A DNA stretch of 64,000 nt from Phycisphaerales bacterium (GTDB lineage Bacteria > Planctomycetota > Phycisphaerae > Phycisphaerales > UBA1924): assembly GCA_019744815.1 (NCBI GenBank), contig JAIEUA010000001.1:186001-250000 (forward strand). The letters are read 5' to 3'. The notes under the pieces were generated by a model, which had not been told where the DNA came from, made no database searches, and saw only the letters and a program-made list of their open reading frames with translations. The position numbers were made by a program, and so were the translations under genes. Position 1 is the first letter of the stretch. Each line of letters begins with the position of its first letter. Positions 5,060-62,350 of the stretch are shown here, piece after piece.

Positions 5060-6250
5060 CTATTTCTTCGCACCCATCGCCCCGATGATCCGCGAATAAA
5101 ACTCTCCCTGCGCACTCCCCTTGTGCCAGCGCCACACCACCACGAGCCCGTGCTCGTTGTCGATCCAGATCGTGTTGTCGCCCGCGCCCTGGGCCGAGAA
5201 CGAACTCCTCGGCACGTCCGGCCAGCGTCCCTCGTTGTTCAGCCACCACAAGAAGCCGTAATCGCTCTTCACGCCCTGCGGCTTCGTCGCCTCGCGCACC
5301 CATTGCTCGCTGACGATCTGCTTCTCCCCCCACTTCCCGCCGCGGCTGATGAGCAGGCCGAACCGCGCGTGATCGAGCGTGCTGATCCACAGCCCGCCGC
5401 CCCAGCGGGTGCCGCCGCTGATTGATGGCATCTTCTCCTGCTTCCCGCCGACATCGACCTCGACCATCGCGTTGTCGTACGGGATCCACTTCCATGTCGT
5501 CGTCGCCCCGATCGGGTTCATCACCTCGTCGCGCCAGACCTCCGGCAGCGGCTTCTTCCACAGCCGCAGCATCGAGAGAGCGAAGCGATTGATCCGCACG
5601 TCGTTGTACTCGTAGAAGGTGCCGGGCTGCCACAGCTCGCGTGGCTTCATCGCGCCCATGCCGTACTCGGCCGCGCCGGGGAAGTCGTGCGATTTGCCGA
5701 ACATCTCGCCCCGCCACTCGATCGACTGGGTCGCGTGGTGCCGCCACGTCACCAGCGCGTTGTGGGCCGGCTGGCCCGGCGCGTCCACGTATCCCTCATC
5801 ACCCACGCTCGCGTTGATCCGCTCCCCCACTTTCTCGTCGATCGATCCGATCAAGCCGCGATCGAGCGTCAGGCCGAGGATCGTGGACAGATAACTCTTC
5901 GCCACGCTGTACGTCGGGTCGACGGCGTTCACATCGCCGAACTCCGCGATGATGTAGCCGTCCTTCAGGATCACGCCGTTGGTCGACGCCCGCGTCGAAG
6001 GCAGCGGCCCCAGCGGCCTGCCGAAAATCTCGGCCTGCTTCGAAAAGTCCTTGGGCCAGTCGGTCTCCTGCGTCAGCGCCCACGCCACCGCCTCGGCGAT
6101 CTTCGCATCGTCCATGCCCAATTCGGACGGCTTCTTGCGCTCCCACGATCCCGCGGGAGGGACGTACGCATCCGCGCCACGCACGGGTGCGCCGACCCAC
6201 ACCCACGCCGCCAGCATCGCCAGACCGACCAGCAGTGACTTCATTCGCAT
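5060..6250 (-). CDS. Secreted serine hydrolase, class C beta-lactamase-like
   Basis: 396 residues with an N-terminal signal peptide (LLVGLAMLAAWVWVGAPVRGA). The serine-hydrolase motifs of the beta-lactamase class C/PBP-like family are present: the SxxK tetrad as SVAK in DPTYSVAKSYLSTILG, the YxN motif as YEYNDVRIN, and GGGLWISTLDHARFGLLI in the C-terminal half. Such proteins are esterases, peptidases or amidases of the envelope; the substrate cannot be read from the sequence. A hexamer TAGACT ends six bases before the ATG and no SD is seen, so the mRNA is probably leaderless. Confidence 0.85.
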   Translation of the reverse strand: MRMKSLLVGLAMLAAWVWVGAPVRGADAYVPPAGSWERKKPSELGMDDAKIAEAVAWALTQETDWPKDFSKQAEIFGRPLGPLPSTRASTNGVILKDGYIIAEFGDVNAVDPTYSVAKSYLSTILGLTLDRGLIGSIDEKVGERINASVGDEGYVDAPGQPAHNALVTWRHHATQSIEWRGEMFGKSHDFPGAAEYGMGAMKPRELWQPGTFYEYNDVRINRFALSMLRLWKKPLPEVWRDEVMNPIGATTTWKWIPYDNAMVEVDVGGKQEKMPSISGGTRWGGGLWISTLDHARFGLLISRGGKWGEKQIVSEQWVREATKPQGVKSDYGFLWWLNNEGRWPDVPRSSFSAQGAGDNTIWIDNEHGLVVVWRWHKGSAQGEFYSRIIGAMGAKK

Positions 6251-6256
6251 GCGGCC

Positions 6257-6262
6257 AGTCTA
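6257..6262 (-). promoter_or_regulatory. -10-like hexamer TAGACT, six bases from the start
   Basis: On the minus strand TAGACT precedes GGCCGC and then the ATG of the serine hydrolase. This is the spacing expected when transcription starts on the start codon. Confidence 0.5.
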
Positions 6263-6269
6263 CCGCGGT

Positions 6270-8789
6270 TCAGCGTGTCGCCGCTTCGAGCGCGACGGCG
6301 GCGTTGATCACGCCCAGGTGCGAATAGACCTGAGGGAAGTTGCCGAGCGCCACGCGGGACTCTGGGTCCCATTGCTCGGCCAACAGCCCGGTCGGCCCGG
6401 CCTGTTCGAGCACACGCTCGAACAGCTCCCGGGCATCGTCGATCCGTCCCAGCGTGACCATCGCCTCGACGAGCCAGCACGCCGCGATGACGAAACCGCC
6501 CTCGCCGCCGGGCAGGCCGTCGTCGCCACGGTACCGCAGCACCGTCGCGCCCTCCAGCAACTCGCGCTCGACCGCTTCCACCGTCGCCTTCCAGCGCGGG
6601 TCCTTGGCATCGAGCAGCCCTTTCAGGCCGATGGCGAGCACCGAGGCATCAAGATCCTCGGACTCGTACGCCGCCGTGAACACGCCGCTGTGGCTGCCGC
6701 GCTCGAGCACCTCGCGGCCGATCTCGTCGCGGAGGGATCGCCACTGCGGGTTGTCTCCTCCCATCATCGCGTCGTGCACGACCAGAGCGCGATCCACGGC
6801 GTGCCAGCACATGACCTTGGAGTGCACGTGGTGCCGCCTCGGGCCACGGATCTCCCAGATGCCGTGGTCCGGCTCGCGCCACTTCGCCTCGACCGCGCGG
6901 ACCATGGCCCGCACCAGCCGCCAAGCCTCGGGCGACACCGGCACGCCCCGCTGCGTCATGCCCGCGACCATGTCGATCACCGGGCCGAAGACGTCGAGCT
7001 GCACCTGCTGGGCCGCGGCGTTCCCGACCCGCACCGGACGACTACCCGCGTAGCCCGCGAGACCATTGATCTCGGCCTCGGCGCCGAGGTCTTCACCCGC
7101 GACGGTGTAGATCGGGCGGAATCGCTCGGGCGCATCGAGTCGATCGACGATGGCGATCAGCCACTCGGTCATCTTCATCGCGTGCCCGGTGTTGCCAACG
7201 CTCAGGAGCGCGCTGGCCGCCATGCACGCGTCGCGGGGCCAGCAGAATCGGTAATCCCAGTTCCGCACGCCACCGAGCTGCTCGGGCAGACTCGTCGTTC
7301 CCGCCGCGGCGATCGCGCCGCTCGGGCCATTGCACAGGGCCCGGATCGTGAGCGCCGCGCGAGCCACATGCTCGCGGTACCGGGTCGGCAACTGCAGCGT
7401 TCCCAACCAGCCCGACCAGTGCCGCAGCGTCTGGTTCCGCCGCGCCGCCTCGGCGACGACGCCTTCCTTCATGTTGGCCGTGCCCACGCGAAGCTCGAGG
7501 ATCACCCGCCCGCCCATCGCGTCGAGATCGATGATCGCCTCAGCCGACGCCCGGTGCGCATCGTTCGGCACGATCGTCCAGGCCACGCCCGGCGCCCGCA
7601 GCACGCACGGCTCACTCACGCCCGACAGCTCCACGCCCTGCTCGCGCACCGTGATCGTCGCCTCGACGCGCCCAAAGTCCGGCCTCGGCGCGAACAGCAC
7701 ACGCACCCGGCCGCTTCCCTCGATCATCCGGACCAGATCGCTGCGCCCGGCCCGCTGATACGCGCGCCCGCCCGAGCAATCGAGATAGTCCGTGATGGAG
7801 AACGTCTCCCACCTCGTCCGCAGCACCAGCGAGTTCTTGAGGTACTCCTGACCGATCGGTGCCGCTCCGGACTCCGCCTCGATCGCGAAGAACCCCGCCT
7901 CGGGCCCGCCGAGCAGCTCGGCAAAGAACGCCGGCGAGTCCAGCCGCGGCAGGCACATCCACGTGATCCGCGCCGAAGGCGTCACGACCGCGATCGTGCG
8001 TTGATCGGACAAGATCGAGTGCCGCTCGATCGGCACGAGCGTGCGCCCCTCCAGCCATGCCCGACGCAGTCGCAGCAACTCCTCCAGAAACTCCGCAACC
8101 TCGTTCACGCCGGCGACCCGCGTCGCCGCGAGCGAGTCTCCCTCGCCCACCTTGATCCCGGTGTCGTGCGATTCCAAGGCCGCGAAGGCGTCCTCGTCGG
8201 TGGTGTCGTCGCCCAGGAAGACCACGTGCGAGGCCCCGGCTCGGTGCCGCGCCCGCCGCAGCGCCCCGCCCTTGTCCGCGGTCGAGAAGCAGAACTCCAT
8301 CACCCGCGATCCGTTGCGCAGGGTAACGCCGGGCATGTCCGCCGCGATCCGCTCCGCGGCCGTCATCACCTCCAGCACGCGGCTGTCGCTCACCTTCCTG
8401 TAGTGCAGCGCCACCGCGTAGGGCTTGCGTTCCACCAGGCAGCCCTCGATCCGTGCGGCCACCTCGTCGAGGCGCTCGGCGAGCGCCCCCTTGCCCTCGG
8501 TCGAGACGAACGCGACCGCGGCGCCCTCTTCCTCCACGCCGTGGCTTCCAAACCGCATCGCCCGGGGAATCGAGCTCGTGGCTTCCTTCAGCCACGCCAG
8601 ATCGCGCCCGGAGATGATCGCCACCCGCGTCTGCGGCAGCGTCGACAGCGCCGCGAGCGCCGCCCCGCACTTGGGATCCTGCTTCGCCTGCTGCGGCGTT
8701 CCCACCAGCGGAGAAATGGTCCCGTCAAAGTCGGACGCCACCAAGAGCAGCGGCGACTTGCTCAGGCTCTCCAGACGTGACTTGGGCAT
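6270..8789 (-). CDS. Trehalose-6-phosphate phosphatase fused to a GH15 domain
   Basis: 839 residues. Residues about 1-245 form a HAD-family trehalose-phosphatase: LLLVASDFDGTISPLVG holds the nucleophile Asp, and VFLGDDTTDEDAFAAL is the Mg-binding motif. Residues about 260-835 form a GH15 (alpha/alpha)6 domain as in glucoamylases and actinobacterial trehalases: the N-terminal SILSDQRTIAVVTPSARITW and the conserved block VRNWDYRFCWPRDACMAAS. The phosphatase would release trehalose from trehalose-6-P; the GH15 half would hydrolyse an alpha-glucoside, possibly trehalose itself. The ATG at 8789 is preferred over the track start 8810 because GGAGGTGAGAGG lies just before it with ideal spacing. It is the downstream gene of an operon with otsA. 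Confidence 0.9.
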   Translation of the reverse strand: MPKSRLESLSKSPLLLVASDFDGTISPLVGTPQQAKQDPKCGAALAALSTLPQTRVAIISGRDLAWLKEATSSIPRAMRFGSHGVEEEGAAVAFVSTEGKGALAERLDEVAARIEGCLVERKPYAVALHYRKVSDSRVLEVMTAAERIAADMPGVTLRNGSRVMEFCFSTADKGGALRRARHRAGASHVVFLGDDTTDEDAFAALESHDTGIKVGEGDSLAATRVAGVNEVAEFLEELLRLRRAWLEGRTLVPIERHSILSDQRTIAVVTPSARITWMCLPRLDSPAFFAELLGGPEAGFFAIEAESGAAPIGQEYLKNSLVLRTRWETFSITDYLDCSGGRAYQRAGRSDLVRMIEGSGRVRVLFAPRPDFGRVEATITVREQGVELSGVSEPCVLRAPGVAWTIVPNDAHRASAEAIIDLDAMGGRVILELRVGTANMKEGVVAEAARRNQTLRHWSGWLGTLQLPTRYREHVARAALTIRALCNGPSGAIAAAGTTSLPEQLGGVRNWDYRFCWPRDACMAASALLSVGNTGHAMKMTEWLIAIVDRLDAPERFRPIYTVAGEDLGAEAEINGLAGYAGSRPVRVGNAAAQQVQLDVFGPVIDMVAGMTQRGVPVSPEAWRLVRAMVRAVEAKWREPDHGIWEIRGPRRHHVHSKVMCWHAVDRALVVHDAMMGGDNPQWRSLRDEIGREVLERGSHSGVFTAAYESEDLDASVLAIGLKGLLDAKDPRWKATVEAVERELLEGATVLRYRGDDGLPGGEGGFVIAACWLVEAMVTLGRIDDARELFERVLEQAGPTGLLAEQWDPESRVALGNFPQVYSHLGVINAAVALEAATR

Positions 8790-8801
8790 CCTCTCACCTC
8801 C
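8790..8801 (-). promoter_or_regulatory. Strong Shine-Dalgarno that decides the phosphatase-GH15 start
   Basis: GGAGGTGAGAGG on the minus strand, with GGAGG ending seven bases before the ATG at 8789. The earlier ATG at 8810 overlaps the otsA stop as ATGA and has no SD of its own. Confidence 0.75.
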
Positions 8802-8806
8802 CATGG

Positions 8807-10186
8807 TCATTCGTCGAGCACCTCAAGAAAGCCTCGCGACCAATCGTGCACATCGTGCCGACGCACGTTGGAGCGGAGCATCGCCATCCGCATGCGTTGC
8901 TCTTCCTCGGGCATCCGCACCGCCTGCACGATCGTCTTCTTCAGCGTCTCCACGTCACGGGGATTCACAAGCAGCGCCCGACGCAGCTCGCGTGCCGCGC
9001 CGGCAAACTCGCTGAGCACCAACACACCCGTGCCATCGTCGCGGCACATCACGTACTCCTTCGCAACCAGATTCATCCCGTCACGCAGCGGCGTGACCAG
9101 CATCACGTCCGCCGCGAGGTAGTAGGCCACCAGCTCCTCACGCGACAGCGAACGCCGGAAGTAATGCACCGCCACCTTCCCGGGCATGCTGAACTCGCCG
9201 TTGATCCGGCCGACCATGCCCTCGACCTCGCGCCGGGTCTCCTCATAGCCCGGCACCGACTCGCGGCTCGGCACCGCGATCTGCACCATCACGCACTCGT
9301 TCACCGACAGCTTGCGATCCTGCAGCAGCTCGTGAAACGCGGCAAGCCGCAACGGAATGCCCTTGGTGTAATCGAGCCGATCGACGCCCAGAAGCAGCTT
9401 GCGCCCGGCGAGCTGCTGCTTGATCTCCGCCGACTTGCGTCGGACCGAGGGCGACGCCGCGATCTTCTCGAACTCCGCCGACGGAATCGAGATCGGGCAG
9501 GCCATCACCCGCACGCTGCGCCGGTCGATGGTCAGCTCTCGCTCGGTTCCCTCCGCGCCCGCGTACCGCTTGGCCACTCGAACAAAGTTCTCCGCGCTCG
9601 CCTGGGTCTGGAACCCGATCACATCGGCCCCCAGCAGCCCGCGCAGGATCGCGCTCCGCCAAGGCAGCCACGCGAAGAGCTCGTCCGGCGGGAACGGGAT
9701 GTGCAGGAAGAACCCGATCCGCGAGGAGGGCTTGCGCTCGCGGATCATCCGCGGCACGAGCTGCAACTGATAGTCGTGCACCCAGATCACGCCCTTGCGA
9801 CGCGACGCACGGGCCGCCGCAGCCGCGAACCGCTGGTTCACAGCGATATACGGATCCCACCACGCGCGGTGAAACTCCGGATTCACAATCGCATCGTGAT
9901 AGAGCGGCCAGAGCGTGGTGTTGCAGAAGCCGTGGTAGTAGCGATCCACCTCGCCGCGCGACAACGCCACCGCGCGCACCTCAATCGGCCCCGCCCGACC
10001 CGGACGCGGCGCAGGCCCCGCCCCGCCGTCCCACCCGATCCACACACCCCCGCGCTCCTCCATCACCGGCGCCACCGCCGACACCAACCCGCCCGGGCTG
10101 CGCTCCCACCGCGCGCCCGCACCCTCCCCGACCCGCGACGCGGGCAATCGATTGGCAACAACGACAAGCCGCGGCGGTGACTTCAT
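8807..10186 (-). CDS. otsA: Trehalose-6-phosphate synthase
   Basis: Transfers glucose from a nucleotide sugar to glucose-6-phosphate in the cytoplasm (GT20 family). The start at 10186 gives MKSPPRLVVVANRLPAS, the usual N-terminus of the family; the extra 30 residues in the track lack homology. Seen motifs: SPGGLVSAV (nucleotide-sugar loop), VWIHDYQLQLVP-like VIWVHDYQLQLVPRMI, FFLHIPFPPDELFAWLP, GVDRLDYTKGIPLRL and TPLRDGMNLVAKEYV. Length 459 is normal. Its stop overlaps or abuts the phosphatase-GH15 gene, so both steps of the OtsA/OtsB route come from one transcript. Confidence 0.96.
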   Translation of the reverse strand: MKSPPRLVVVANRLPASRVGEGAGARWERSPGGLVSAVAPVMEERGGVWIGWDGGAGPAPRPGRAGPIEVRAVALSRGEVDRYYHGFCNTTLWPLYHDAIVNPEFHRAWWDPYIAVNQRFAAAAARASRRKGVIWVHDYQLQLVPRMIRERKPSSRIGFFLHIPFPPDELFAWLPWRSAILRGLLGADVIGFQTQASAENFVRVAKRYAGAEGTERELTIDRRSVRVMACPISIPSAEFEKIAASPSVRRKSAEIKQQLAGRKLLLGVDRLDYTKGIPLRLAAFHELLQDRKLSVNECVMVQIAVPSRESVPGYEETRREVEGMVGRINGEFSMPGKVAVHYFRRSLSREELVAYYLAADVMLVTPLRDGMNLVAKEYVMCRDDGTGVLVLSEFAGAARELRRALLVNPRDVETLKKTIVQAVRMPEEEQRMRMAMLRSNVRRHDVHDWSRGFLEVLDE

Positions 10187-10582
10187 GCACTGAATCGCCT
10201 TTCCCGTCGCAGCGGCGACGGACGAGCCAAGTTGATCAAGTGCGCAGCGCCACACCGAACGCGCACGCGGATACATCGGTGTACGCCCGCGAGCCGAACG
10301 GGTTCAGGAAAAGTCCGAGATCACAATCACGCTGGATGCCACCGCTTGAATGGCTTAAGGCGAAAGCAGCGTGAGAGCGACTCGCAGAAAGAGGTGCCAT
10401 CAGTCCGCCGGCTCGGCGGCGCGACTGATGCGGCGCGGCGTCGACGCCCAAGCTCCAGACGCACCAGTCGCGCGGCTCCGAGCACCCGCGGACTGGTGGC
10501 ACCTTCGGATGGCTCGCGAACAAGACCACGCTCGCACAGCTGCAAAGAGCGAGGACGCCCCGGCTCGCTCAAGAAGCGTCGC
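10187..10582. other. Intergenic region between otsA and manA with repeat fragments
   Basis: Holds a fragment of the GGTGCC palindromic family at about 10336-10370, a full copy of the GGTGCCATCAGTC element (10393-10503) and a lone family-A arm (about 10549-10571). No credible gene; the ORFs 10232-10756 and 10327-10782 cross the repeat and the end of manA. Confidence 0.6.
10393..10503. repeat. Palindromic doublet, family B, copy 1
   Basis: 111 bp from GGTGCCATCAGTCCGCCGG to GCGGACTGGTGGCACC. The left half folds as CATCAGTC...GACTGATG with an inner CCGCCG-GCT-CGGCGG; the right half as CACCAGTC...GACTGGTG. The outer ends are inverted to each other. Near copy at 19596-19708. Confidence 0.8.
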
Positions 10583-11638: not shown

Positions 11639-11657
11639 GGATTCATCATCGGCGCTT

Positions 11658-11746
11658 CGGGGGCGGGGGCTTCCAGCCCCCGCGCGATGACATGTTTGGA
11701 ACGCAAAACCGTCTGGCGCCGGGGCCTGGAAGGCCCCGCCCCCAAG
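11658..11746. repeat. Palindromic element with GGGGGCGGGGG arms
   Basis: Left arm GGGGGCGGGGGCTTCCAGCC, right arm GGCCTGGAAGGCCCCGCCCC, about 35 bp of AT-richer interior (ATGACATGTTTGGAACGC). It lies between manA and fabZ on the minus strand and could act as a terminator for fabZ. Confidence 0.6.
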
Positions 11747-11761
11747 GCTTGCCCCGCCGCT

Positions 11762-12316: not shown

Positions 12317-12479
12317 CTTTCTTTTCCAGCACCGTCTCGCGAATCTCCTGCGCCGCGGCCTTCACGTCCTGCATGGCCTTGCGCACCCGCGTCCCGGCGG
12401 CCTTGTTCCCGCCGTCAAACTTCAGCACATCGGCCTCGGCCTCGGCAACGATCTTCTTCAATTTCTCAAAGGCTTCCAC
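12297..12479 (-). CDS. Histone H1-like protein, Hc1 family
   Basis: 60 residues: VEAFEKLKKIVAEAEADVLK, then FDGGNKAAGTRVRKAMQDVK and AAAQEIRETVLEKK. The GGNKAAGTRVRK(A/T)MQD block matches the chlamydial/planctomycete Hc1 family, small DNA-binding nucleoid proteins thought to compact DNA. It is a GTG start with AGGAG about ten bases upstream, and a TAGAAT hexamer lies some 60 bp upstream (12540-12545). The stop falls within fabZ, 20 bp past the fabZ start. The acidic balance of this copy (many D/E) is higher than in the classic Lys-rich Hc1, so nucleic-acid binding is inferred rather than shown. Confidence 0.82.
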   Translation of the reverse strand: MEAFEKLKKIVAEAEADVLKFDGGNKAAGTRVRKAMQDVKAAAQEIRETVLEKKDVEKPS

Positions 12480-12619
12480 GGTTGGCAGCTCCTGATTTCA
12501 CAACGTCGCTTGCGGGCGGACTCCCCCGCCCAGGTCGGCATTCTAGGACGCCATTTCGTCCGCGTTGATCGGACACTGTTCGGGGCACCCTCGCGCCCCC
12601 TCACCCCCACACCCCCACA

Positions 12620-12716: not shown

Positions 12717-12749
12717 GGACTCATCGGCCCTCGAACAAGACGCCATTCC

Positions 12750-17742: not shown

Positions 17743-17748
17743 AGCATA
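17743..17748 (-). promoter_or_regulatory. -10-like TATGCT close to the MORN-protein start
   Basis: TATGCT then CTACGGGGT then ATG on the minus strand, a nine-base gap without SD. Confidence 0.4.
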
Positions 17749-17952: not shown

Positions 17953-17958
17953 TACACT
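17953..17958 (+). promoter_or_regulatory. -10-like TACACT six bases before a GTG start
   Basis: GTTACACTCAGCGCGTG: TACACT, six bases, GTG of the small membrane protein. No SD. Confidence 0.5.
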
Positions 17959-18617: not shown

Positions 18618-18710
18618 GATGTGCCGCGCGACTGATGCGGCGAGGCTTCGACGCGAGTGTTCCAGACCCACCAGTCGCGCGGCTCCGAGCCGCCGCGGAC
18701 TGGTGGCACC
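18618..18710. repeat. Palindromic doublet, family B, copy 3 (5'-shortened)
   Basis: GATGTGCCGCGCGACTGATG to CCGCGGACTGGTGGCACC. It lacks the CATCAGTCCGCCGG segment of the left hairpin, while the right hairpin is nearly identical to copy 1. Confidence 0.7.
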
Positions 18711-37333: not shown

Positions 37334-37418
37334 CGCGAAGGTATCGGCAGGCTCTGCGCCGACGCATCAGATTTTCGGACCTTGGCCGGTTCGCCACCGG
37401 CTCGCCCACATCGCCGGC

Positions 37419-42661: not shown

Positions 42662-42667
42662 TACGCT
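42662..42667 (+). promoter_or_regulatory. -10-like TACGCT six bases before metG
   Basis: TACGCT, GGGTCG, ATG. The palindromic repeat ends right at the hexamer; no SD. Confidence 0.5.
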
Positions 42668-44636: not shown

Positions 44637-44642
44637 TACGCT
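44637..44642 (+). promoter_or_regulatory. -10-like TACGCT eight bases before the antiporter start
   Basis: TACGCT, CGCCCCGC, ATG. Same hexamer as at metG; no SD. Confidence 0.45.
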
Positions 44643-46598: not shown

Positions 46599-47548
46599 GG
46601 GCGAGCGTACGCGGAGAGGCGAGGGCTGGGGGCGTAGAGGTCGGCGGAGGTTTGGGGGTGGCGAGATGGCGGGCCGGGATGAGTCGGTATTGCGGCTGCC
46701 AGAGGCGCGGGGAGATGCGTGGATGCGGGGGGCGAGAGTGGCTGGTTGCTGGGCGTTGGTTGTGCTTGCGATGTCGGGGTGGCCCCACGCTCGCGCGTGG
46801 GGTTCGTTGGAGCTTGACGCTGAAACGCGGTGGCGTTGAGGCACGCGCTCGACCACTCACCTGTTTCGCCGGGGGCGAAACGGTCATCTCGCCTCGGCGC
46901 GGAGAGATGCGCGGATGCGGGGTGTGAGAGTGGCTGGTTGCTGGGCGTTGGTTGTGCTTGCGACGTCGGGGTGGCCCCACGCTCGCGCGTGGGGTTCGTT
47001 GGGGCCACGTCGGCGAGCGGTGTGTAGCGAGCGATCCGGAGCAGGAGGTTGGCGGACTTGCGGGCGCTCTCGCGGCTTTGCATGCGGGCGGCGAAGGCGT
47101 GATGGGTCGCCGCGGGAACGCGATGGACCGAGGCGTGATCGTCCTTGGCCTCGGCGAGCAGGTGGAGCAGCGTGTTGGCGATGGCGTTGAGGTTGTTGGC
47201 GACGGTGAGTCGGGCGCGGCGGGCGCAGGCGTACTCGAGCGCGCTCAGACGCTCCGCGATGTCGGGACGGATCATCCAGAGGGTGAGGGCTTCGAGGGTT
47301 GTCTCGTGACGGTCGGCGATGTCGAGGAGGGTGATCTCGTTGGAGGCGAGCTCGTTGATGATGGTGGCGGCGGTGGCGGCGGAGGGGTTGAAGTGGAGCG
47401 GATCAAGGGAGGACGGGAGAAGGACAGCAGCGTCGGAGTCCGAGGCAGCCCTTCCCCCTGCCCCTTCCCTCTGGGAAGGGGAGTGCGCGTGCGGCGATGC
47501 CGCGGGGCGCGGGGTGATGGTGAGTGGTGTGAAGGGCAGGGCCGACAT
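46511..47548 (-). CDS. Unknown protein whose C-terminus is built from captured repeats
   Basis: 345 residues. Residues about 55-175 look like a genuine alpha-helical domain: AATIINELASNEITLLDIADRHETTLEALTLWM, an HTH-like start, then ARRARLTVANNLNAIANTLLHLLAEAK. From about residue 180 the protein is Pro/Thr/Ser-rich and carries two copies of APTNPTRERGATPTSQAQPTPS, the translation of the 110-bp direct repeat at 46702 and 46892. The last 30 codons overlap the methyltransferase start. I think the original gene ended near 47020 and has been extended by repeat insertion. Function unknown; the HTH suggestion is weak. Confidence 0.6.
   Translation of the reverse strand: MSALPFTPLTITPRPAASPHAHSPSQREGAGGRAASDSDAAVLLPSSLDPLHFNPSAATAATIINELASNEITLLDIADRHETTLEALTLWMIRPDIAERLSALEYACARRARLTVANNLNAIANTLLHLLAEAKDDHASVHRVPAATHHAFAARMQSRESARKSANLLLRIARYTPLADVAPTNPTRERGATPTSQAQPTPSNQPLSHPASAHLSAPRRDDRFAPGETGEWSSACLNATAFQRQAPTNPTRERGATPTSQAQPTPSNQPLSPPASTHLPAPLAAAIPTHPGPPSRHPQTSADLYAPSPRLSAYARPCPPPAMSITPSSGSATPATAAPIRASPP
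46604..46609 (-). promoter_or_regulatory. -10-like TACGCT five bases before the methyltransferase start
   Basis: TACGCT, CGCCC, ATG on the minus strand, within the overlapping gene's 3' end. Confidence 0.4.
46702..46810. repeat. 110-bp direct repeat, copy 1
   Basis: About 93% identical by eye to copy 2 (46892-47002). Contains GTGGCTGGTTGCTGGGCGTT and ends with the hairpin CCCCACGC-TCGC-GCGTGGGG. On the minus strand it encodes NPTRERG. Confidence 0.85.
46892..47002. repeat. 110-bp direct repeat, copy 2
   Basis: Second copy, separated from the first by about 80 bp and also within the reading frame of 46511-47548. Confidence 0.85.
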
Positions 47549-52422: not shown

Positions 52423-53211
52423 CTACTTCTCGTCTTCGGCGACCAGGGTCACGGTCTGGGTGTTGCGGCTGAGGTTGAAGAGGCCGACCTTGACGACGCG
52501 TTCCTGGGTTTCGCGGACGATGCCCTTGGCGGGATCGATGTCGAGGATCGCGGTGCGGTCGACGGTGGTGAAGTCGAACTTGGCAACGAGCTCGGACTCG
52601 AGGCGCAAGAGGCCGTCTTTGGTGCCCAGGAGGGTGGTGGTCTGGGTGGCGGTGCCGCGGGTTTTGTTCTGACCTTTGGAGTCGGACATGGTGACGTCGG
52701 CGGTGCTGACGCAGGGCTTGGTGAGCGTGGCGGGCATGAGGACGAGGGCGGGGTCGAAGGTGAGGATGCGTCCCTCGGCGGCGAGGTCGAGCTGCTTGAG
52801 GAAGACGGCGCCCTCGGCGGAACGCTCGAGGGTGGTGCGGCGGACCAGCGCGCCCTGCAGGGTGGCGTCTCGCGTCTCGTACTCGTCGATGGTCCAGGTC
52901 TGGACCGTGCTCAGCGATGTTTCCGCTGGCTTGGCCTCGCGCCGGACCAGACGCTTGCCTTCACGGTAGTTCTTGGTCCAGGGGGCGGCGCGATAGACGA
53001 CGGCGGCGTCGAGGGAGGTTGGAGCCGACGCGTTGGGAGCGGCGCTGACGACGGGGGTGTTGTCGGTGCTGCGATCAGCGCTGGCGCAGGCGGGGATCAG
53101 GCACGCGAGGGTGAGGAGGCACGTTGACGCAACCCACCCCCTGGCCCCCTCCCTCCCCCCACTGTGGGAGCGGGAGAAGCAACGGCCAGAAATCGCGCGT
53201 GCGGTGAGCAT
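52423..53211 (-). CDS. Lipoprotein of unknown function
   Basis: 262 residues from the ATG at 53211. The N-terminus is basic for about 25 residues, then STCLLTLACLIPACASAD, a likely lipobox ending at Cys. The mature protein is beta-rich (AVVYRAAPWTKNYREGKRLVRRE, TTLLGTKDGLLRLESELVAKFDF, RETQERVVKVGLFNLSRNTQTVTLV). No catalytic motif. It is divergent from the HEAT-repeat lipoprotein with only 22 bp between the start codons; their likely -10 elements overlap. Confidence 0.7.
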   Translation of the reverse strand: MLTARAISGRCFSRSHSGGREGARGWVASTCLLTLACLIPACASADRSTDNTPVVSAAPNASAPTSLDAAVVYRAAPWTKNYREGKRLVRREAKPAETSLSTVQTWTIDEYETRDATLQGALVRRTTLERSAEGAVFLKQLDLAAEGRILTFDPALVLMPATLTKPCVSTADVTMSDSKGQNKTRGTATQTTTLLGTKDGLLRLESELVAKFDFTTVDRTAILDIDPAKGIVRETQERVVKVGLFNLSRNTQTVTLVAEDEK

Positions 53212-53218
53212 GGGGAAA

Positions 53219-53226
53219 CTTATACT
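53219..53226. promoter_or_regulatory. Overlapping divergent -10 elements
   Basis: CTTATACT reads TATACT on plus (53221-53226), seven bases before the ATG at 53234, and TATAAG on minus (53224-53219), seven bases before the ATG at 53211. The two would exclude each other when bound by polymerase. Confidence 0.5.
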
Positions 53227-53233
53227 CCCGCCC

Positions 53234-54136
53234 ATGGCCTTGCCACGACGAGTTGTCTTTGCCGCCGCTGCCGCCCGAAAGGGGCGTGTCGCGCTTTGCG
53301 GGATGATGGTGGGTGTGGCGGCGTGCCTGGGCGGGTGCGATGTCTTCGACGATGTGAGGCCCGGGGCGCAGAGCCTGTTTGACCTGTGGCAGTTGCCCTC
53401 GCCCAGCGAGGCGGCGGAGATGGCGGTCGATCCCTACGACGCGGACAAGCGGTATCGCGGGACGATGCTGCTCTCCAGCGCGTACTTCGCCGGGCAGGAT
53501 GTCTACATCCGGCTGTTCGAGGACGCGGCCAAGGACCCTGACTCGGGCGTGCGGCTGGCGGGCACCAAGGCGCTGGCGAACCACGGATCGTCGAAGCACG
53601 TGGCGATCCTGATCGAGCGGCTGAAGGACAAAGAGCCGTTGGTGCGCCTGGAAGCGGCGCGCGGGCTGCAGCGGCTGCACGGCGAGGAGGCGATCGAGCC
53701 CCTGATGAACGCGAGCCGCGACCCGGACCTGGTCGCGCTGCGGGGCGAGGAGTCGGAGGAGAATCCCGACATCCGCACCGAGGCGGCCCACGCGCTGGGG
53801 CAGTATCGCACCGACGCGGTGGTGCAGCACCTAATCAAGGTCCTGGTGGATTCCAAGCTGAGCGTGAACCGCAGCGCGTTGGCGTCGCTGCGGACGCTGA
53901 CGGGGCAGGACTTTGGCTTTGATCGGCGGGCGTGGGTGACGTGGTACGACGCGGCCCCGGAGCCGTTCGCGGCGGGGACGCCGTATGTGTATCCGGTGTT
54001 CCAGCGTGACAAGACGTTCCTGGAGTACCTGCCCTTTGTGAGCCCGCCGCCGAACGAGGTGGCGGCGACGCCCTCGGGCATGCCGCCGATCGCGGGTGGA
54101 ACGCTGGCGCCGCAGTCCGAGAACGCGAAGAACTGA
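53234..54136 (+). CDS. HEAT-repeat lipoprotein
   Basis: 300 residues from the ATG at 53234, chosen over earlier in-frame codons because TATACT lies seven bases upstream. The signal ends in a lipobox (MMVGVAACLGGCDVF). Four to five HEAT/PBS-lyase-like repeats follow at about 75-225: SGVRLAGTKALANHGSSKHVAILIERLKDKEPLVRLEAARGLQRL, NPDIRTEAAHALGQYRTDAVVQHLIKVLVDSKLSVNRSALASLRTL. The C-terminus is Pro-rich. Probably a periplasmic scaffold or binding protein; partner unknown. Confidence 0.85.
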   Translation: MALPRRVVFAAAAARKGRVALCGMMVGVAACLGGCDVFDDVRPGAQSLFDLWQLPSPSEAAEMAVDPYDADKRYRGTMLLSSAYFAGQDVYIRLFEDAAKDPDSGVRLAGTKALANHGSSKHVAILIERLKDKEPLVRLEAARGLQRLHGEEAIEPLMNASRDPDLVALRGEESEENPDIRTEAAHALGQYRTDAVVQHLIKVLVDSKLSVNRSALASLRTLTGQDFGFDRRAWVTWYDAAPEPFAAGTPYVYPVFQRDKTFLEYLPFVSPPPNEVAATPSGMPPIAGGTLAPQSENAKN

Positions 54137-54154
54137 GGGCGGGTGTCTTGACGA

Positions 54155-55242: not shown

Positions 55243-55266
55243 GCGATCCGGCGTGGCGCGGATCAC

Positions 55267-55272
55267 TACCCT
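55267..55272 (+). promoter_or_regulatory. -10-like TACCCT five bases before aroC
   Basis: CACTACCCTTGGAGATG: TACCCT, TGGAG, ATG. Spacing too short for GGAG to act as SD. Confidence 0.4.
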
Positions 55273-55277
55273 TGGAG

Positions 55278-56477: not shown

Positions 56478-56528
56478 CTGAGTTTTCTTCCGAGATGGCT
56501 ACGGACTTCGATTGGCAGCAAGCGCCCT

Positions 56529-56534
56529 TACAAT
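56529..56534 (+). promoter_or_regulatory. -10-like TACAAT six bases before hicB
   Basis: TTACAATCCACGCATG: TACAAT, six bases, ATG. The best TATAAT match of the set. Confidence 0.55.
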
Positions 56535-56540
56535 CCACGC

Positions 56541-56741
56541 ATGAAATGGCGAGTGATCCTCGAACGCGATCCCGAAACCGGTGACTGGGCGGCATGGGTT
56601 CCCGAACTTCCTGGCTGCGCCTCGGCAGGCTCGACAGAGGCGGAAGCCCTCGCCAACATCCGCGAGGCCATCGAGCTCTACCTGCAGCGCGACCCGATCG
56701 AACTGCCCCCTGGCGCAGTGATCCGCGAGATCGCGGCGTAA
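56541..56741 (+). CDS. hicB: HicB-like antitoxin
   Basis: 66 residues: KWRVILERDPETGDWAAWVP, then ELPGCASAGSTEAEALANIREAIELYLQ, the partial RNase H-like fold of HicB, ending RDPIELPPGAVIREIAA. It lacks the C-terminal DNA-binding domain of long HicB proteins, as in the short HicB group, so autoregulation would need another factor. It starts 63 bp after aroC with TACAAT six bases upstream of the ATG. The toxin gene follows after 38 bp in the same direction. Confidence 0.9.
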   Translation: MKWRVILERDPETGDWAAWVPELPGCASAGSTEAEALANIREAIELYLQRDPIELPPGAVIREIAA

Positions 56742-56779
56742 GAGCCATTCTTCCACCACCTCGCGGGAGTGCGGCACGA

Positions 56780-57004
56780 ATGGGAGAGCGCGTCCTTCGG
56801 ATGACATCACGCGAGGTGCAGGACGTACTCCGACGCTACGGCTTTGTGCTTGTGTCGCAGAAGGGCAGCCACCAAAAGTGGCGCAGCCTGACGCGGGGAC
56901 TTCAGGTCATTGTGCCTCACCACCAGAGCAAGCCCCTGCCGCTCGGTACGATGCTCTCGATCATGAAGGGCGCGGAGATTCCCGAGTCGGAGTATCGAGG
57001 TTGA
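56780..57004 (+). CDS. hicA: HicA-like mRNA interferase toxin
   Basis: 74 residues from the ATG at 56780 (an internal ATG at 56801 would remove the first seven residues). The dsRNA-binding-like fold has VLRMTSREVQDVLRRYGFVL, then VSQKGSHQKWRSL with the catalytic His of the GSH motif, and VIVPHHQSKPLPLGTMLSIMKGAEIPESEY. HicA cleaves mRNA and is held by HicB. The order here is antitoxin first. The ORF in the track starting at 56594 is a shadow of hicB for its N-terminal part. Confidence 0.92.
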   Translation: MGERVLRMTSREVQDVLRRYGFVLVSQKGSHQKWRSLTRGLQVIVPHHQSKPLPLGTMLSIMKGAEIPESEYRG

Positions 57005-57117
57005 ATTGCCTCGTGAATCCTCTGCGCGGGGCGATCCGCCCGCTCTGACGAGTGGGGCTGATTCACGAGCTGACTGAGCACGGTGTCCGCCCGCAGGTTC
57101 CTCCCCAAGAATCACAG

Positions 57118-58686
57118 ATGCTGCGAAGTGCGTTGGCGTTGACGATGTTGGCGTGTTCCTCGATCGCGGGAGCGAACGCGGGCGATTGGATGGCCGCGGA
57201 CGCGGGGGCGTTGCACCCGCCCGAGCCGGCGCGGGAGTTCCGCGCGGTCTGGGTCGCCAGCGTGCAGAACATCGATTGGCCGAGCGCGAAGGACCTGTCG
57301 GTCGAGAAGCAGAAGGCCGAGATCGTCCGCAACGTGGACGGGCTGGCGAAGATGAACTTCAACGCCGTGCTGTTGCAGGTGCGGCCTTCGTGCGATGCGT
57401 TGTATCCGTCCACGCTGGAGCCGTGGAGCGAGTACCTGACCGGGGCGAGCGGCAAGGCGCCGGACGATCCCGCGTACGACCCGCTGGCGATCTGGATCGA
57501 AGAGTGCCACAGGCGCGGCATCGACGTGCACGTGTGGATCAACCCGTACCGCGCCCGGCACTTCAAGGCGACCTCGCCCGATGCGCCCAGCCATATCTCC
57601 AACACCAATCCGTCGATCGTGAAGTCGTACGACAACTACGAGTGGCTCGACCCCGGCGAGCCCGAGGCGGTCGAGCACACGATGAAGGTGGTGATGGACA
57701 TCGTCTCGCGCTACGACATCGACGGCGTGGCGATCGACGATTACTTCTATCCGTATCCCAAGGAAGGCGTGCCCTTTCCGGATGACGAGAGCTACCAGAA
57801 GTACGTGACGAAGCTGAAAGCGGAGGCGCCCGAGGGCACGGCGGTGCGGCCGCTCGCGCGCGATCTGTGGCGCCAGGACAACATCAACCGCTTCGTGGAG
57901 CGGTTCTACACCGACATCAAGAAGGCCAAGCCGCATGTGTTGGTGGGGATCGCGCCGTTCGGGATCTGGCGTCCGGGCAACCCGGAGGGGATCAAGGGGA
58001 TGGACGCGGTGGCGCGTTTGCACGCGGACGCGAAGTACTGGCTGGCGAACGGGTGGCTGGATTACCTGTCGCCGCAGCTGTATTGGAGCGTCGATTCGGT
58101 GCCGCAGAACTTTGCGCGGCTCTTGGTGTGGTGGGCATCGGTGAACAGCAAGGACCGGCATCTGTGGCCGAGCCTGTACACGAGCCGCATCAACCAGCAG
58201 AGCGAGGACCCGACGAAGAACTGGATCCCCGACGAGATCGTGCGGCAGATCACGATCACCCGCGAGCGGGCCACCAACCCCGGGATCGCGACGCCGGGGC
58301 AGATCCATTTCTCGCTGAAGGTGATGCTCGAGAACCGCGGCGGGATCAACACGGCGCTGATGGCGAGTTACGAGCAGCCGGCGCTGGTGCCGGAGACGGC
58401 GTGGTCGAGCGACCCGGCGTTCGCGGCGACCGGGTGGGAGGCGCTGATCGCCAGCGACGCCGAGAAGACGGCGTTGGCGTGGAAGCCGTGGGAGTTGCCC
58501 ACGATGCCCTCGCGCTGGGTGCTGTGGGTCCGGCGCGGCGAGGCGTGGACGACGACGATACTGCCCGGCACGCGCGGCGGCGAGACGTTCGAGACCAAGG
58601 GGGCGGACGCGGTGGTGCTGGCACCTGTGTCGCGGACCGGGACGGTGGGCAAGCAGCGTGCGTGGACGGTTTCGTCGCCTCGGTAA
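57118..58686 (+). CDS. Secreted GHL10/DUF187 glycoside hydrolase-like protein
   Basis: 522 residues from the ATG at 57118. Signal peptide LRSALALTMLACSSIAGANA. The catalytic (beta/alpha)8 domain starts REFRAVWVASVQNIDWPSAKDL and has FNAVLLQVRPSCDALYPST, YDPLAIWIEECHRRGIDVHVWINPYRA, YDIDGVAIDDYFYPYP with two Asp near the strand end, and VLVGIAPFGIWRPGNPEGI. These are the hallmarks of the GHL10 (DUF187) family, which includes peptidoglycan- or polysaccharide-acting enzymes. The C-terminal 90 residues form a beta domain. Substrate unknown. Confidence 0.9.
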   Translation: MLRSALALTMLACSSIAGANAGDWMAADAGALHPPEPAREFRAVWVASVQNIDWPSAKDLSVEKQKAEIVRNVDGLAKMNFNAVLLQVRPSCDALYPSTLEPWSEYLTGASGKAPDDPAYDPLAIWIEECHRRGIDVHVWINPYRARHFKATSPDAPSHISNTNPSIVKSYDNYEWLDPGEPEAVEHTMKVVMDIVSRYDIDGVAIDDYFYPYPKEGVPFPDDESYQKYVTKLKAEAPEGTAVRPLARDLWRQDNINRFVERFYTDIKKAKPHVLVGIAPFGIWRPGNPEGIKGMDAVARLHADAKYWLANGWLDYLSPQLYWSVDSVPQNFARLLVWWASVNSKDRHLWPSLYTSRINQQSEDPTKNWIPDEIVRQITITRERATNPGIATPGQIHFSLKVMLENRGGINTALMASYEQPALVPETAWSSDPAFAATGWEALIASDAEKTALAWKPWELPTMPSRWVLWVRRGEAWTTTILPGTRGGETFETKGADAVVLAPVSRTGTVGKQRAWTVSSPR

Positions 58687-58827
58687 GGCGCTGGGCGCGA
58701 AAAGAGCAGGGAACCGATCCCAAGAAACGACTCGGCCCCGCGGCGGTGGCGTGCGGGGGCCGGGGTTGCGTCGCGTGGTAGTGTGGGCGGGCGATCGGTC
58801 GCGGGTTCGGTGAGGGAGGAGCTGCTC
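58687..58827. other. Short intergenic region
   Basis: 140 bases between the hydrolase and the cytochrome protein, same direction. Only the SD GGAGGA (58815-58820) for the next gene is notable. Confidence 0.5.
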
Positions 58828-61785
58828 ATGGCGTTTGGCAAAGAGGCCGGGTACGCACTGGTGGTGGGGTTGGCGTGCGTGGGCATGGCCGGGGCGTGGG
58901 TGGTGCAGGACGATCCCTTCGCCGACCGGTACGTCAACAGCTCGTTCGTGAACTGGGAGAGCCCGCACGTCCATCCGCTGGAGCGCGTGGGCGATCGGCT
59001 GCTCGCGGTGAACACGGCCGACGCGCGGCTGGAGCTCTTCGATATCGCCAGCGGGCTGCCGTATGCCGCGGGGTCGATCGCGGTGGGCATCGATCCGGTC
59101 AGCGTGCGGGCCCGCACCGCGACCGAGGTGTGGGTGGTGAATCACATCTCCGACAGCATCAGCGTGGTGGACCTTGCGACCAAGCGGGTGGTGCGGACGA
59201 TCTCGACCAAGGACGAGCCGTGCGATGTGGTGTTTGCGGGCACGCCGCAGCGGGCGTTTGTGACGTGTTCCTCGGCGAAGGTCGTGCAGGTGTTTGATCC
59301 CGCCGACACGACGCCCGGTGGCGTGGTGCTCAGCGAGATCGCGATCAAGGGCGAGGCTCCGCGCTCGATGGGCGTGAGCCCCGACGGCAGCAAGGTGTAC
59401 GCGGCGATCTTTGAATCGGGCAACGGCTCGACCGTGCTCGGCGGCGGCGCCCAGTCGATCCCCGGCGGCATGGTGCTCGGCTTCCCGCCCAACGTCGTGA
59501 ACGATGTCAGCGGCCCCTATGGCGGCATCAACCCGCCGCCCAATGTCGGGTTGCTCTTCGTCCCGGCCCTGAACCCCGCGGCGGGCACGCCGCCGAAGGT
59601 GGGGCTGATCGTGCGCAAGAACGCGGCCGGTCAGTGGATGGACGACAACAACGGCAACTGGACGGATCTGGTCAGCGGCGCCAACGCGAGCAAGTCCGGG
59701 CGTCAGCCGGGATGGGACCTGCCCGATCGCGATCTGGCGGTCATCGACGCCAACGCGCTGACGGTGAACTACGCCACGCGACTGATGACCATGTGCATGA
59801 GCGTGGGCGTGAACCCGGTGACCGGCAAGGTCGCGGTGATCGGCACCGAGGCGCAGAACCAGAAGCGCTTCGAGCCCAACCTCACCGGCACGTTCATCAA
59901 GGTTGAGGTCGCGAGCGTCGATCCGGTCTCGCTCGGCGCGAGCGTGGCGGATCTGAATCCGCATCTTGCGTACACCAGCTCGAGCATCGCGGTGGGCGAG
60001 CGAAACAAGGCGCTGGGCGATCCGCGGGCGATCGCGTGGAACGCGGCGGGAACGGTGGCGTATGTCGCGGGCATGGGCTCGAACAACGTGATCGCGATCG
60101 ATGCGGGCGGCTCGCGCCTCACGCCGACGCCGATCGAGGTGGGTGAGGGCCCGACCGGTCTGGCGCTCGACGAGAGCCGCGACCGGCTGTTCGTGCTGAA
60201 CAAGTTCGACGGCTCGATCTCGGTGGTGTCGCTGTCAGGCGGGAATGAAGTGATCCGCGTGCCGTTCTTTGATCCGACGCCCAACGCGATCAAGTCCGGG
60301 CGAGTCCATCTGTACAACACGCACCTCAACTCGGGCTTGGGGCAGGTTTCGTGCGCCTCGTGCCATGTTGACGGGCGCACCGACCGGCTGGCGTGGGACC
60401 TGGGCGACCCGAGCGGCTCGACGCAGGCGCTCACGGGCCTGAACCTGGGCGCGAACTTCCCCGGTCTGAACACCGGCTTCCAGCCCTTCCATCCCATGAA
60501 GGGCCCGATGACGACGCAGACGCTGCAGGACATCATCGAGCACGAGCCGCACCACTGGCGCGGCGATCGCTCCGGCATCGAGGCCTTCGCCGGCGCGTTC
60601 GCCGGGCTGCAGGGAGCGGACACGCCGCTGAACCCCGCGGCGATGCAGGAGTTCGAGAACTTCCTCGCGTCGATCACCATCCCGCCGAACCCAAACCGCA
60701 ACATCGACAACACGCTGCCCAGCAGCCTGCCGCTGCCGGGTCACTACACCACCGGGCGCTTCGGGCCCGCGGGCCAGCCTTTGCCCAACGGCAACGCGAA
60801 CAACGGCGTGGCGATCTATCGCAGCCAGTCGCGGCGGCTCGACGGCGGGAATCTCTCGTGCGTGCAGTGTCACACCCTGCCCACCGGCATGGGCACGGAC
60901 ATGACCCTGCAGGGCAATCGCTTCGTCGCGATCCCGCCCGGACCCAAGGGCGAGAAGCACCACGCCGTGGTCTCGGTCGACGGCTCGACCAACGTCACGA
61001 TCAAGATCCCGCAGCTCCGCACGCTCTACAAGAAGACCGGTTTCAACACCACGCAGCTCGACAACACCAGCGGCTTTGGTTTGCTCCACGACGGCTCGGT
61101 CGATTCGATCGAGCGTTTCGTCTCCGAGCCCGTCTTCACGCTCGTGAGCAATCAGGAAGTCGCGGACATGACGGCGTTCATGCTGTCGTTCGCCGGGTCG
61201 GACCTGCCGCAGGGCTCGGCGACCAATCCCTTCGAGCCGCTGGGCCCGCCCAGCAAGGACACCCACGCGGCGGTGGGACGACAGAGCACGCTGGTGTCGC
61301 TCGCGACCGCGTCCACCGACCAGAAGGCCTTGCTCACCTCGTTCGAGACGCAGGCCAACACCGGCAAGGTCGGGCTCATTGTGCGGGCCACGATCAACGG
61401 CGTCGAACGCGGCTGGGCCTTCACCGGCGGCGGGAACTTCAAGTCCGACACCAACACGACGATCACCTCGGCCGCACTCAAGGCCCTCGCCGGCGCCGGC
61501 AGCGAGCAGACCTGGACCGTCGTGCCCAAGGGGAGCGAGACGCGTCTGGGCATTGATCGCGACCTCGACGGCATCCTCAACGGCAACGAGGCCGCGGTGT
61601 GCGTCGGCGATCTCAATGGCGACGGCCAGGTGGACGACGCCGACTTCCAGGTGTTCGTGGTGAACTACGACCTGCTGGTCGTGCCGCCGGCGAGCATGGC
61701 GTCGGACTTGAACCGCGACGCCCAGGTGGACGACGCGGACTTCCAGGTCTTTGTGGTGGCGTACGACGCCCTGATCTGTCCGTAA
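58828..61785 (+). CDS. Beta-propeller / di-heme cytochrome c / GC-type dockerin protein
   Basis: 985 residues from the ATG at 58828, preceded by GGAGGA. Signal peptide GYALVVGLACVGMAGAWVV. Residues about 40-530 carry YVTN-type propeller repeats (RLELFDIASGLPYAAGSIAVG, VWVVNHISDSISVVDLATKRVVRTI). Two c-type heme sites follow, SCASCHVDGRTDR (about 510) and LSCVQCHTLPTGMG (about 680). Near 850-925 is TGKVGLIVRATINGVERGWAF, then the C-terminal dockerin-like pair (GDLNGDGQVDDADFQVFVVNYDLL, SDLNRDAQVDDADFQVFVVAYDAL) ending LICP. It is probably an exported electron-transfer or oxidase-like protein anchored through the dockerin domain. Confidence 0.87.
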   Translation: MAFGKEAGYALVVGLACVGMAGAWVVQDDPFADRYVNSSFVNWESPHVHPLERVGDRLLAVNTADARLELFDIASGLPYAAGSIAVGIDPVSVRARTATEVWVVNHISDSISVVDLATKRVVRTISTKDEPCDVVFAGTPQRAFVTCSSAKVVQVFDPADTTPGGVVLSEIAIKGEAPRSMGVSPDGSKVYAAIFESGNGSTVLGGGAQSIPGGMVLGFPPNVVNDVSGPYGGINPPPNVGLLFVPALNPAAGTPPKVGLIVRKNAAGQWMDDNNGNWTDLVSGANASKSGRQPGWDLPDRDLAVIDANALTVNYATRLMTMCMSVGVNPVTGKVAVIGTEAQNQKRFEPNLTGTFIKVEVASVDPVSLGASVADLNPHLAYTSSSIAVGERNKALGDPRAIAWNAAGTVAYVAGMGSNNVIAIDAGGSRLTPTPIEVGEGPTGLALDESRDRLFVLNKFDGSISVVSLSGGNEVIRVPFFDPTPNAIKSGRVHLYNTHLNSGLGQVSCASCHVDGRTDRLAWDLGDPSGSTQALTGLNLGANFPGLNTGFQPFHPMKGPMTTQTLQDIIEHEPHHWRGDRSGIEAFAGAFAGLQGADTPLNPAAMQEFENFLASITIPPNPNRNIDNTLPSSLPLPGHYTTGRFGPAGQPLPNGNANNGVAIYRSQSRRLDGGNLSCVQCHTLPTGMGTDMTLQGNRFVAIPPGPKGEKHHAVVSVDGSTNVTIKIPQLRTLYKKTGFNTTQLDNTSGFGLLHDGSVDSIERFVSEPVFTLVSNQEVADMTAFMLSFAGSDLPQGSATNPFEPLGPPSKDTHAAVGRQSTLVSLATASTDQKALLTSFETQANTGKVGLIVRATINGVERGWAFTGGGNFKSDTNTTITSAALKALAGAGSEQTWTVVPKGSETRLGIDRDLDGILNGNEAAVCVGDLNGDGQVDDADFQVFVVNYDLLVVPPASMASDLNRDAQVDDADFQVFVVAYDALICP

Positions 61786-61840
61786 GGACGATCGGGGGAA
61801 TGAGCTTGGAAGCGGGCGGTGCCGCGGCGGTCTGGATCGA

Positions 61841-62338
61841 TCAGCCGATCACTTCGGCCTTGGTGATGGTGACGGGTTCAACCGGGACGTCGCCGTGGCC
61901 GTGCTTGGTGCCGGTCTTGACCTGGCGGATCGCGTCGACGACGTCGAGGCCGGCGGTGACCTTGCCGAAGACGGCGTAGGCGGCGCCGTCGGGCTGGGGA
62001 CGATCAAGGAAGGCGTTGTCGACGGTGTTGATGAAGAACTGGCTGGTGGCGCTGTCGGCGTCGCCGCCGAGGCGGGCCATGGCGACGGTGCCGCGGAGGT
62101 TCTTGAGGCCGTTCTTCCACTCGTTCTTGATGGGCTTGTTGGTGGGCTTCTTGGCCATGTCGGCGGTGTGCCCGCCGCCCTGGATCATGAAGTTGGGGAT
62201 GACGCGGTGGAAGACGGTGCCGGCGTAGTGGCCGCTGTTGACGTAGGCGAGGAAGTTCTCGGTGGAGATGGGGGCTTTGGCGGCATCGAGCTCGATGGTG
62301 ATGTCGCCCTTGGACGTGGTCAGTTTGACGGTTGGCAT
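61841..62338 (-). CDS. ppiB: Cytoplasmic cyclophilin-type peptidyl-prolyl isomerase
   Basis: 165 residues from the ATG at 62338; the track start adds 18 codons from the intergenic repeat. The core is [78 protein letters not shown], and [21 protein letters not shown]: all active-site positions (R, F, Q, F/I) are kept. No signal peptide. It helps cytoplasmic protein folding. TACTCT lies six bases upstream of the ATG. It runs convergent to the dockerin-cytochrome gene with a 55-bp gap. Confidence 0.93.
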
Positions 62339-62344
62339 GGGGTA

Positions 62345-62350
62345 AGAGTA
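62345..62350 (-). promoter_or_regulatory. -10-like TACTCT six bases before ppiB
   Basis: TACTCT, TACCCC, ATG on the minus strand. No SD. Confidence 0.45.

What the first reader, a model, noticed from the sequence alone, without database searches (positions are those of the whole stretch)
6250..62350. Recurrent -10-like hexamer 5-9 nt before start codons: widespread leaderless transcripts?
At about a dozen genes a TATAAT-like hexamer ends only 5-9 bases before the start codon and no SD lies between: serine hydrolase (TAGACT-6), small membrane protein (TACACT-6), MORN protein (TATGCT-9), metG (TACGCT-6), ChaA (TACGCT-8), methyltransferase (TACGCT-5), lipoprotein (TATAAG-7), HEAT lipoprotein (TATACT-7), aroC (TACCCT-5), hicB (TACAAT-6), ppiB (TACTCT-6), fused spermidine synthase (GATAGT-8). 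A -10 at this distance puts the transcription start on or next to the start codon. Other genes (OtsB-GH15, ilvE, PEP-CTERM, cytochrome-dockerin) have clear SDs, so two initiation modes coexist. A TANNCT consensus differs somewhat from TATAAT.
Basis: partly seen in the sequence, partly recalled or inferred. Interest (0 to 1): 0.75.

Follow-up and report, generated by a model that had tools for sequence, protein, structure and literature searches.

The report
Leaderless genes in a Phycisphaerales bacterium
About a quarter of the genes in this planctomycete (Phycisphaerales) genome carry the promoter's -10 box exactly where transcription would begin on the start codon, so their messages probably have no leader and no ribosome-binding site, a mode known from Deinococcus and actinobacteria but apparently not described for this group.

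Summary
In 1.64 Mb of the window's own genome (Phycisphaerales, 66% GC), with gene starts called without looking at motifs, TANNNT peaks sharply at -12/-11 (67 and 47 of 1049 genes; background about 3.5 per position). The rate is 12.5% at starts against 0.06% at internal ATG/GTG codons. It excludes Shine-Dalgarno (6/164 vs 365/885) and is absent from overlapping, operon-internal genes (0/53). A blind two-motif model assigns about 28% of genes to this mode and 61% to GGAG.

The hexamer is a promoter -10 box: it sits before tRNA genes, and SD genes carry it, correctly oriented, 20-100 nt upstream with a -35 TTG at 16-17 bp spacing. Leaderless genes lack a -35 and prefer TACnCT. The hexamer is conserved before aroC (65/84 loci) and metG (27/28 genera of the family), while metG of another class uses SD (12/18) and never the hexamer (0/18).

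It works like the -10-only leaderless promoters of Deinococcus-Thermus. The mechanism is known; its occurrence in Planctomycetota, its conservation and the split promoter grammar appear unreported in the literature I could search.

The parts
6257..6262 (-). -10 hexamer TAGACT, 6 nt before ATG 6250 (beta-lactamase-family serine hydrolase, 5060-6250)
   Evidence: EM posterior 0.94
17743..17748 (-). -10 hexamer TATGCT, 9 nt before ATG 17733 (MORN-repeat protein)
17953..17958 (+). -10 hexamer TACACT, 6 nt before GTG 17965 (203-aa membrane protein)
37338..37343 (-). weak candidate TACCTT, 4 nt before ATG 37333 (586-aa protein)
   Evidence: EM posterior only 0.20
42662..42667 (+). -10 hexamer TACGCT, 6 nt before ATG 42674 (metG); TANNNT at this place in 27/28 other genera of the family
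44637..44642 (+). -10 hexamer TACGCT, 8 nt before ATG 44651 (sodium/calcium exchanger)
46604..46609 (-). -10 hexamer TACGCT, 5 nt before ATG 46598 (methyltransferase)
53217..53224 (-). ambiguous TATAAG/TAAGTT 5-7 nt before ATG 53211 (lipoprotein), overlapping the divergent TATACT
   Evidence: EM L 0.48 / SD 0.43
53221..53226 (+). -10 hexamer TATACT, 7 nt before ATG 53234 (HEAT-repeat lipoprotein)
   Evidence: start choice not certain
55267..55272 (+). -10 hexamer TACCCT, 5 nt before ATG 55278 (aroC); conserved in 65/84 non-redundant related loci
56529..56534 (+). -10 hexamer TACAAT, 6 nt before ATG 56541 (HicB-like antitoxin)
62345..62350 (-). -10 hexamer TACTCT, 6 nt before ATG 62338 (cyclophilin-type PPIase)

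Best explanation
The hexamers are sigma-70-type -10 promoter elements (consensus TACnCT, near-invariant core TA...T) set 5-6 bp, sometimes 7-9 bp, before the start codon. RNA polymerase would start on the A or G of the start codon or within about 3 nt of it. The mRNAs then have no leader and no Shine-Dalgarno, and ribosomes would initiate directly on the 5'-terminal start codon. About a quarter of the genes use this mode, mostly genes that are transcribed first. The others have a GGAG site and an ordinary promoter (-35 TTG, 16-17 bp, TANNNT) 20-100 nt upstream. The leaderless promoters have no -35 and depend on the -10 alone. Shown here: position, exclusion of SD, promoter identity of the hexamer by several independent sequence tests, absence of a -35, conservation in relatives. 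Inferred: the exact 5' ends, recognition by RpoD, and 70S-type initiation.
For: Sharp peak at -12/-11 on motif-blind starts. EM from a flat start finds the same motif and spacing; leaving this mode out costs 422 log units. Rate 12.5% at starts vs 0.06% at 18,710 internal in-frame ATG/GTG; SD exclusion odds ratio 0.054, p=1e-25; 0/53 at overlapping genes; 33% at divergent genes with short spacers. tRNA genes have TANNNT starting -14 to -26 in 8 of 17 cases. SD genes: sense/antisense TANNNT 29:6, 24:3, 21:4, 16:1, 36:10 upstream, while leaderless genes show no such excess. -35 TTG at SD-gene sites 21/138 vs 5.2 expected (p=9e-8) and at leaderless sites 1/131. aroC 65/84 vs 0.8 expected; metG 27/28 vs 0.4 expected, SD 0/28. 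Pyrimidine at -1 (97% at spacer 5, 76% at spacer 6) before a purine start, as at a transcription start, although SD genes also favour C at -1. Controls behave: Deinococcus MP1 shows a peak (6/65), E. coli none (0/44).
Against: No transcript 5' ends are available. The hexamer is short and degenerate, so individual calls can be wrong; the PWM passes 34 control positions against 222 at starts at 5 bits. Some genes could have a second, upstream promoter. At spacers of 8-9 the transcript may carry a 1-3 nt leader. Gene starts come from a home-made caller and no proteomics.
Confidence: 0.92

Rival explanations
1. The hexamer is a translation signal (an AT-rich, non-SD ribosome site or S1 contact) within a normal leader, not a promoter.
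For: It sits near the place where an SD would be and replaces it. AT-rich upstream bias in non-SD genes has been read as a possible S1 signal (PMC5397173).
Against: It also precedes tRNA genes. In SD genes it lies far upstream, strand-oriented and with a -35. It is missing at overlapping genes that need translation but no promoter (0/53). Only T1, A2 and T6 are fixed, as in a -10 box.
Confidence: 0.04
2. The genes carry both modes: the proximal -10 gives a leaderless transcript, and an upstream promoter gives an additional leadered transcript that matters more for expression.
For: Common in mapped bacterial transcriptomes (general knowledge). Some leaderless calls lie short distances behind a co-directional gene and may also be read through.
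Against: Leaderless genes show no excess of sense TANNNT at -20 to -100 (2:1 and 3:3) and almost never an SD, so a leadered form would have no ribosome site.
Confidence: 0.2
3. A separate sigma factor reads the TACnCT, -35-less promoters, making the leaderless genes a regulon rather than the housekeeping default.
For: The two promoter sets differ in -35 and in C at position 3 (61% vs 32%). The genome has about 30 sigma-70 region-2 matches.
Against: TA...T is the classical housekeeping -10. The genes include metG, aroC and ppiB. tRNA genes use similar hexamers. Deinococcus RpoD reads the same TACACT-type -10-only sites (PMC12340547). A normal RpoD is present.
Confidence: 0.08
4. Chance or selective reading by the first stage.
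Against: Genome-wide peak about 20 times background at its top, control codons, orthologue conservation and a negative E. coli control.
Confidence: 0.01

Closest known systems
-10 motif adjacent to ORFs in Deinococcus-Thermus (Zhong et al. 2025, PMC12340547)
   Same: TANNNT with fixed bases 1, 2 and 6; TACACT as commonest form there, TACnCT here; 6-7 bp before the ORF there, mostly 5-6 here; nearly one third of genes there, about 28% here; GGAG as the alternative motif; -35 not required
   Different: Different phylum. There the promoter function, RpoD binding and mutations were tested; here only sequence evidence. Here leadered promoters of the same genome can be shown to carry a -35 that leaderless ones lack.
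TA-like signal leaderless genes of bacteria (Zheng et al. 2011, PMC3160421)
   Same: TANNNT about 12 nt before the start, strongest in high-GC genomes, coexisting with SD genes
   Different: Planctomycetes are not among the phyla listed there as having leaderless genes.
Leaderless transcriptome of Mycobacterium tuberculosis (Cortes et al. 2013, PMC3898074)
   Same: High-GC genome with a large leaderless share, reported with TANNNT -10 boxes (search hit, paper not read in full; comparison partly from general knowledge)
   Different: 5' ends were mapped there; unrelated lineage.

Membership tests
Bacterial leaderless genes (Zheng 2011 type) | TANNNT positional peak about 12 nt upstream of the start codon | tested here: met
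   67 and 47 genes at -12/-11, background 3.5
Bacterial leaderless genes (Zheng 2011 type) | No Shine-Dalgarno at these genes | tested here: met
   6/164 with SD vs 365/885 elsewhere
Bacterial leaderless genes (Zheng 2011 type) | The hexamer is a promoter element | tested here: met
   Indirect, by sequence only: tRNA genes, oriented upstream sites with -35 in SD genes, absence in overlapping genes
Bacterial leaderless genes (Zheng 2011 type) | Mapped mRNA 5' end at the start codon | not testable with these tools
   No RNA data
Bacterial leaderless genes (Zheng 2011 type) | Translation initiation on the 5'-terminal start codon | not testable with these tools
   Needs ribosome profiling or toeprinting
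Deinococcus-Thermus -10-motif expression | No -35 requirement | tested here: inconclusive
   Only the absence of a -35 sequence could be tested, and it holds: TTG at -23/-22 in 1/131 leaderless vs 21/138 SD-gene sites; the requirement itself needs a reporter assay
Deinococcus-Thermus -10-motif expression | RpoD binds the motif; bases 1, 2 and 6 essential | not testable with these tools
   RpoD present and well aligned over its C-terminal regions; the three bases are the near-invariant ones
Deinococcus-Thermus -10-motif expression | Member of the Deinococcus-Thermus phylum | tested here: not met
   Nearest named relatives are Phycisphaerales MAGs

The most novel reading that the evidence does not exclude
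Phycisphaerales evolved, independently of Deinococcus-Thermus, a separate -10-only promoter grammar (TACnCT, no -35) for leaderless genes next to ordinary -35/-10 promoters for SD genes, and individual housekeeping genes such as metG switched from SD to leaderless expression early in the lineage and then stayed so.
Probability: 0.5. Interest if true: 0.6.

Novelty: new member of a known kind. Interest (0 to 1): 0.5.

Why it matters
It extends abundant leaderless expression to Planctomycetota, a phylum not listed in the large 2011 survey. It supplies clean orthologue series (metG, aroC) in which the switch between SD and leaderless expression can be dated, and it means automatic gene starts in these genomes can be improved by using the -10 box. 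The contrast of -35-less leaderless promoters with -35-bearing leadered promoters in one genome makes the question of why leaderless promoters drop the -35 testable.

Tried and rejected
Translation-signal and chance explanations were tested and rejected. A -35 at leaderless genes was looked for by column frequencies, TTGACA matches and TTG offsets without success. An extended -10 (TG at -3) shows a slight excess in the own genome and none in relatives, not pursued. Closely spaced divergent leaderless pairs sharing a -10 were sought genome-wide; the motif-aware starts gave none under 45 bp, partly because N-terminal signal peptides score poorly. Breadth by small samples: G032 and G087 (same family) show a weaker peak (4/66, 2/57), G071 (same order) none in 31 genes, and five more distant planctomycete genomes no excess. 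Rfam gave no hits in the window.

Full report
Where it is. The window is G000:C2:186001-250000 of a 4.11 Mb, 18-contig assembly. The nearest named relatives by AroC are MAGs labelled Phycisphaerales bacterium or Planctomycetota (98-91% identity). I took 1.64 Mb of this genome in 20-kb pieces and called genes with a three-periodic Markov model that chooses starts by coding potential and start-codon type only, blind to upstream motifs (1116 genes, 1049 used).

The observation. TANNNT relative to these starts is flat at about 3.5 per position from -60 to -17, then rises to 13, 20, 17, 67 and 47 at -15 to -11 and falls to 2 at -10. At the top position the hexamer covers -12 to -7, exactly where a -10 box stands relative to +1. 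The rate at -13..-11 is 12.5% at predicted starts, against 0.06% at 18,710 internal in-frame and 5,086 out-of-frame ATG/GTG codons; the reverse complement ANNNTA shows no peak. Two needed re-reading: TAGTCT-6 for the spermidine synthase, and an ambiguous case for the lipoprotein at 53211. Two further candidates were missed.

Two modes. An expectation-maximisation model with one -10-like mode, one SD mode and a null mode gives 28% (bootstrap 26-30%), 61% and 11%. From a flat start it finds T-A-C-n-C-T with spacers 5 and 6 on its own, and GGAG with spacers 5-7. The modes exclude each other even on the motif-blind starts: SD in 6/164 hexamer genes and in 365/885 others (Fisher p=1e-25). Context fits a promoter: 0/53 at genes overlapping the previous gene (68% SD there) and 33% at divergent genes with short spacers.

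Why it is a promoter. First, tRNA genes, which have no start codon, carry TANNNT starting 14-26 nt before the mature end in 8 of 17 cases in this genome, and similarly in relatives. Second, SD genes carry the same hexamer at variable distance, on the sense strand: 29 against 6 antisense at -60..-20 and 16:1 at -100..-60 for co-directional genes, and 36:10 at -100..-60 for divergent ones. Leaderless genes have no such upstream excess (2:1, 3:3). Third, the SD-gene sites have a -35: TTG 22-23 nt before the hexamer, that is 16-17 bp spacing, in 21 of 138 against 5.2 expected (p=9e-8). Leaderless sites have it in 1 of 131 (Fisher p=6e-6). Leaderless hexamers also prefer C at position 3 (61% vs 32%, p=2e-6). 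In 79 loci from other Phycisphaerae the -35 at SD-gene sites (12 vs 3.8) and the C preference repeat, although the direct -35 contrast is only suggestive there (5/129 vs 12/115, p=0.075). The genome encodes a normal RpoD.

Conservation. Anchored at the AroC start, 65 of 84 non-redundant loci have TANNNT at -15..-11 (0.8 expected), with twenty different hexamer sequences and unrelated flanks. Anchored at MetG, 27 of 28 genera of the family have it (0.4 expected) and none has an SD. In a different planctomycete class metG has it in 0/18 and an SD in 12/18, whereas aroC has it in 9/28, some of them near-identical. So the mode is old and stable in Phycisphaerales, metG switched mode between classes, and the phenomenon is not wholly absent elsewhere. 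Its share varies: samples of two same-family genomes show a weaker peak. The pipeline gives a peak on the D. radiodurans MP1 plasmid (6/65) and none on E. coli (0/44).

Comparison with the known. This works like the -10 motif of Deinococcus-Thermus, which is TACACT-like, 6-7 bp from the ORF, present in about a third of genes and active without a -35 (PMC12340547), and like the TA-like signals of Zheng et al. 2011 (PMC3160421). That survey found leaderless genes in 207 of 953 genomes and does not list Planctomycetes among the positive phyla. [quoted passage not shown] GeneMarkS-2 predicts leaderless transcription in 21.6% of bacterial species (cited in PMC9581028), and planctomycetes may be among them; I could not check. 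Searches for leaderless expression or mapped transcription starts in planctomycetes found nothing direct, within an open-access library only.

Verdict. It is a new lineage for a known mechanism, with unusually clear evidence for two promoter grammars in one genome.

Noticed in passing
53211-53234: Divergent lipoprotein and HEAT-lipoprotein genes have proposed starts only 22 bp apart with overlapping -10 hexamers (CTTATACT), a possible bidirectional leaderless promoter; D. radiodurans MP1 (L324, 23963/23994) has a similar arrangement. The start of the plus gene is uncertain.
   Followed up: partly
1-64000: TANNNT is about three-fold rarer in the window than in dinucleotide shuffles (67 vs 193); part may be codon structure, part avoidance of spurious -10 boxes.
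   Followed up: no
56541-57005: HicB-like antitoxin gene followed by a HicA-like ORF (by eye), in antitoxin-first order, with a leaderless-type start at hicB.
   Followed up: no
L247, L250, L252 (aroC loci): Several related MAG aroC frames contain one in-frame TGA or TAG in the search output, probably assembly errors or an artefact of the match end.
   Followed up: no
L285, L287, L288, L291: Some genomes of another planctomycete class have TACAAT at -12 before aroC, so leaderless aroC may be older than Phycisphaerales or arose more than once.
   Followed up: partly
own genome: About 30 sigma-70 region-2 matches, consistent with the sigma-factor expansion known from planctomycetes.
   Followed up: no
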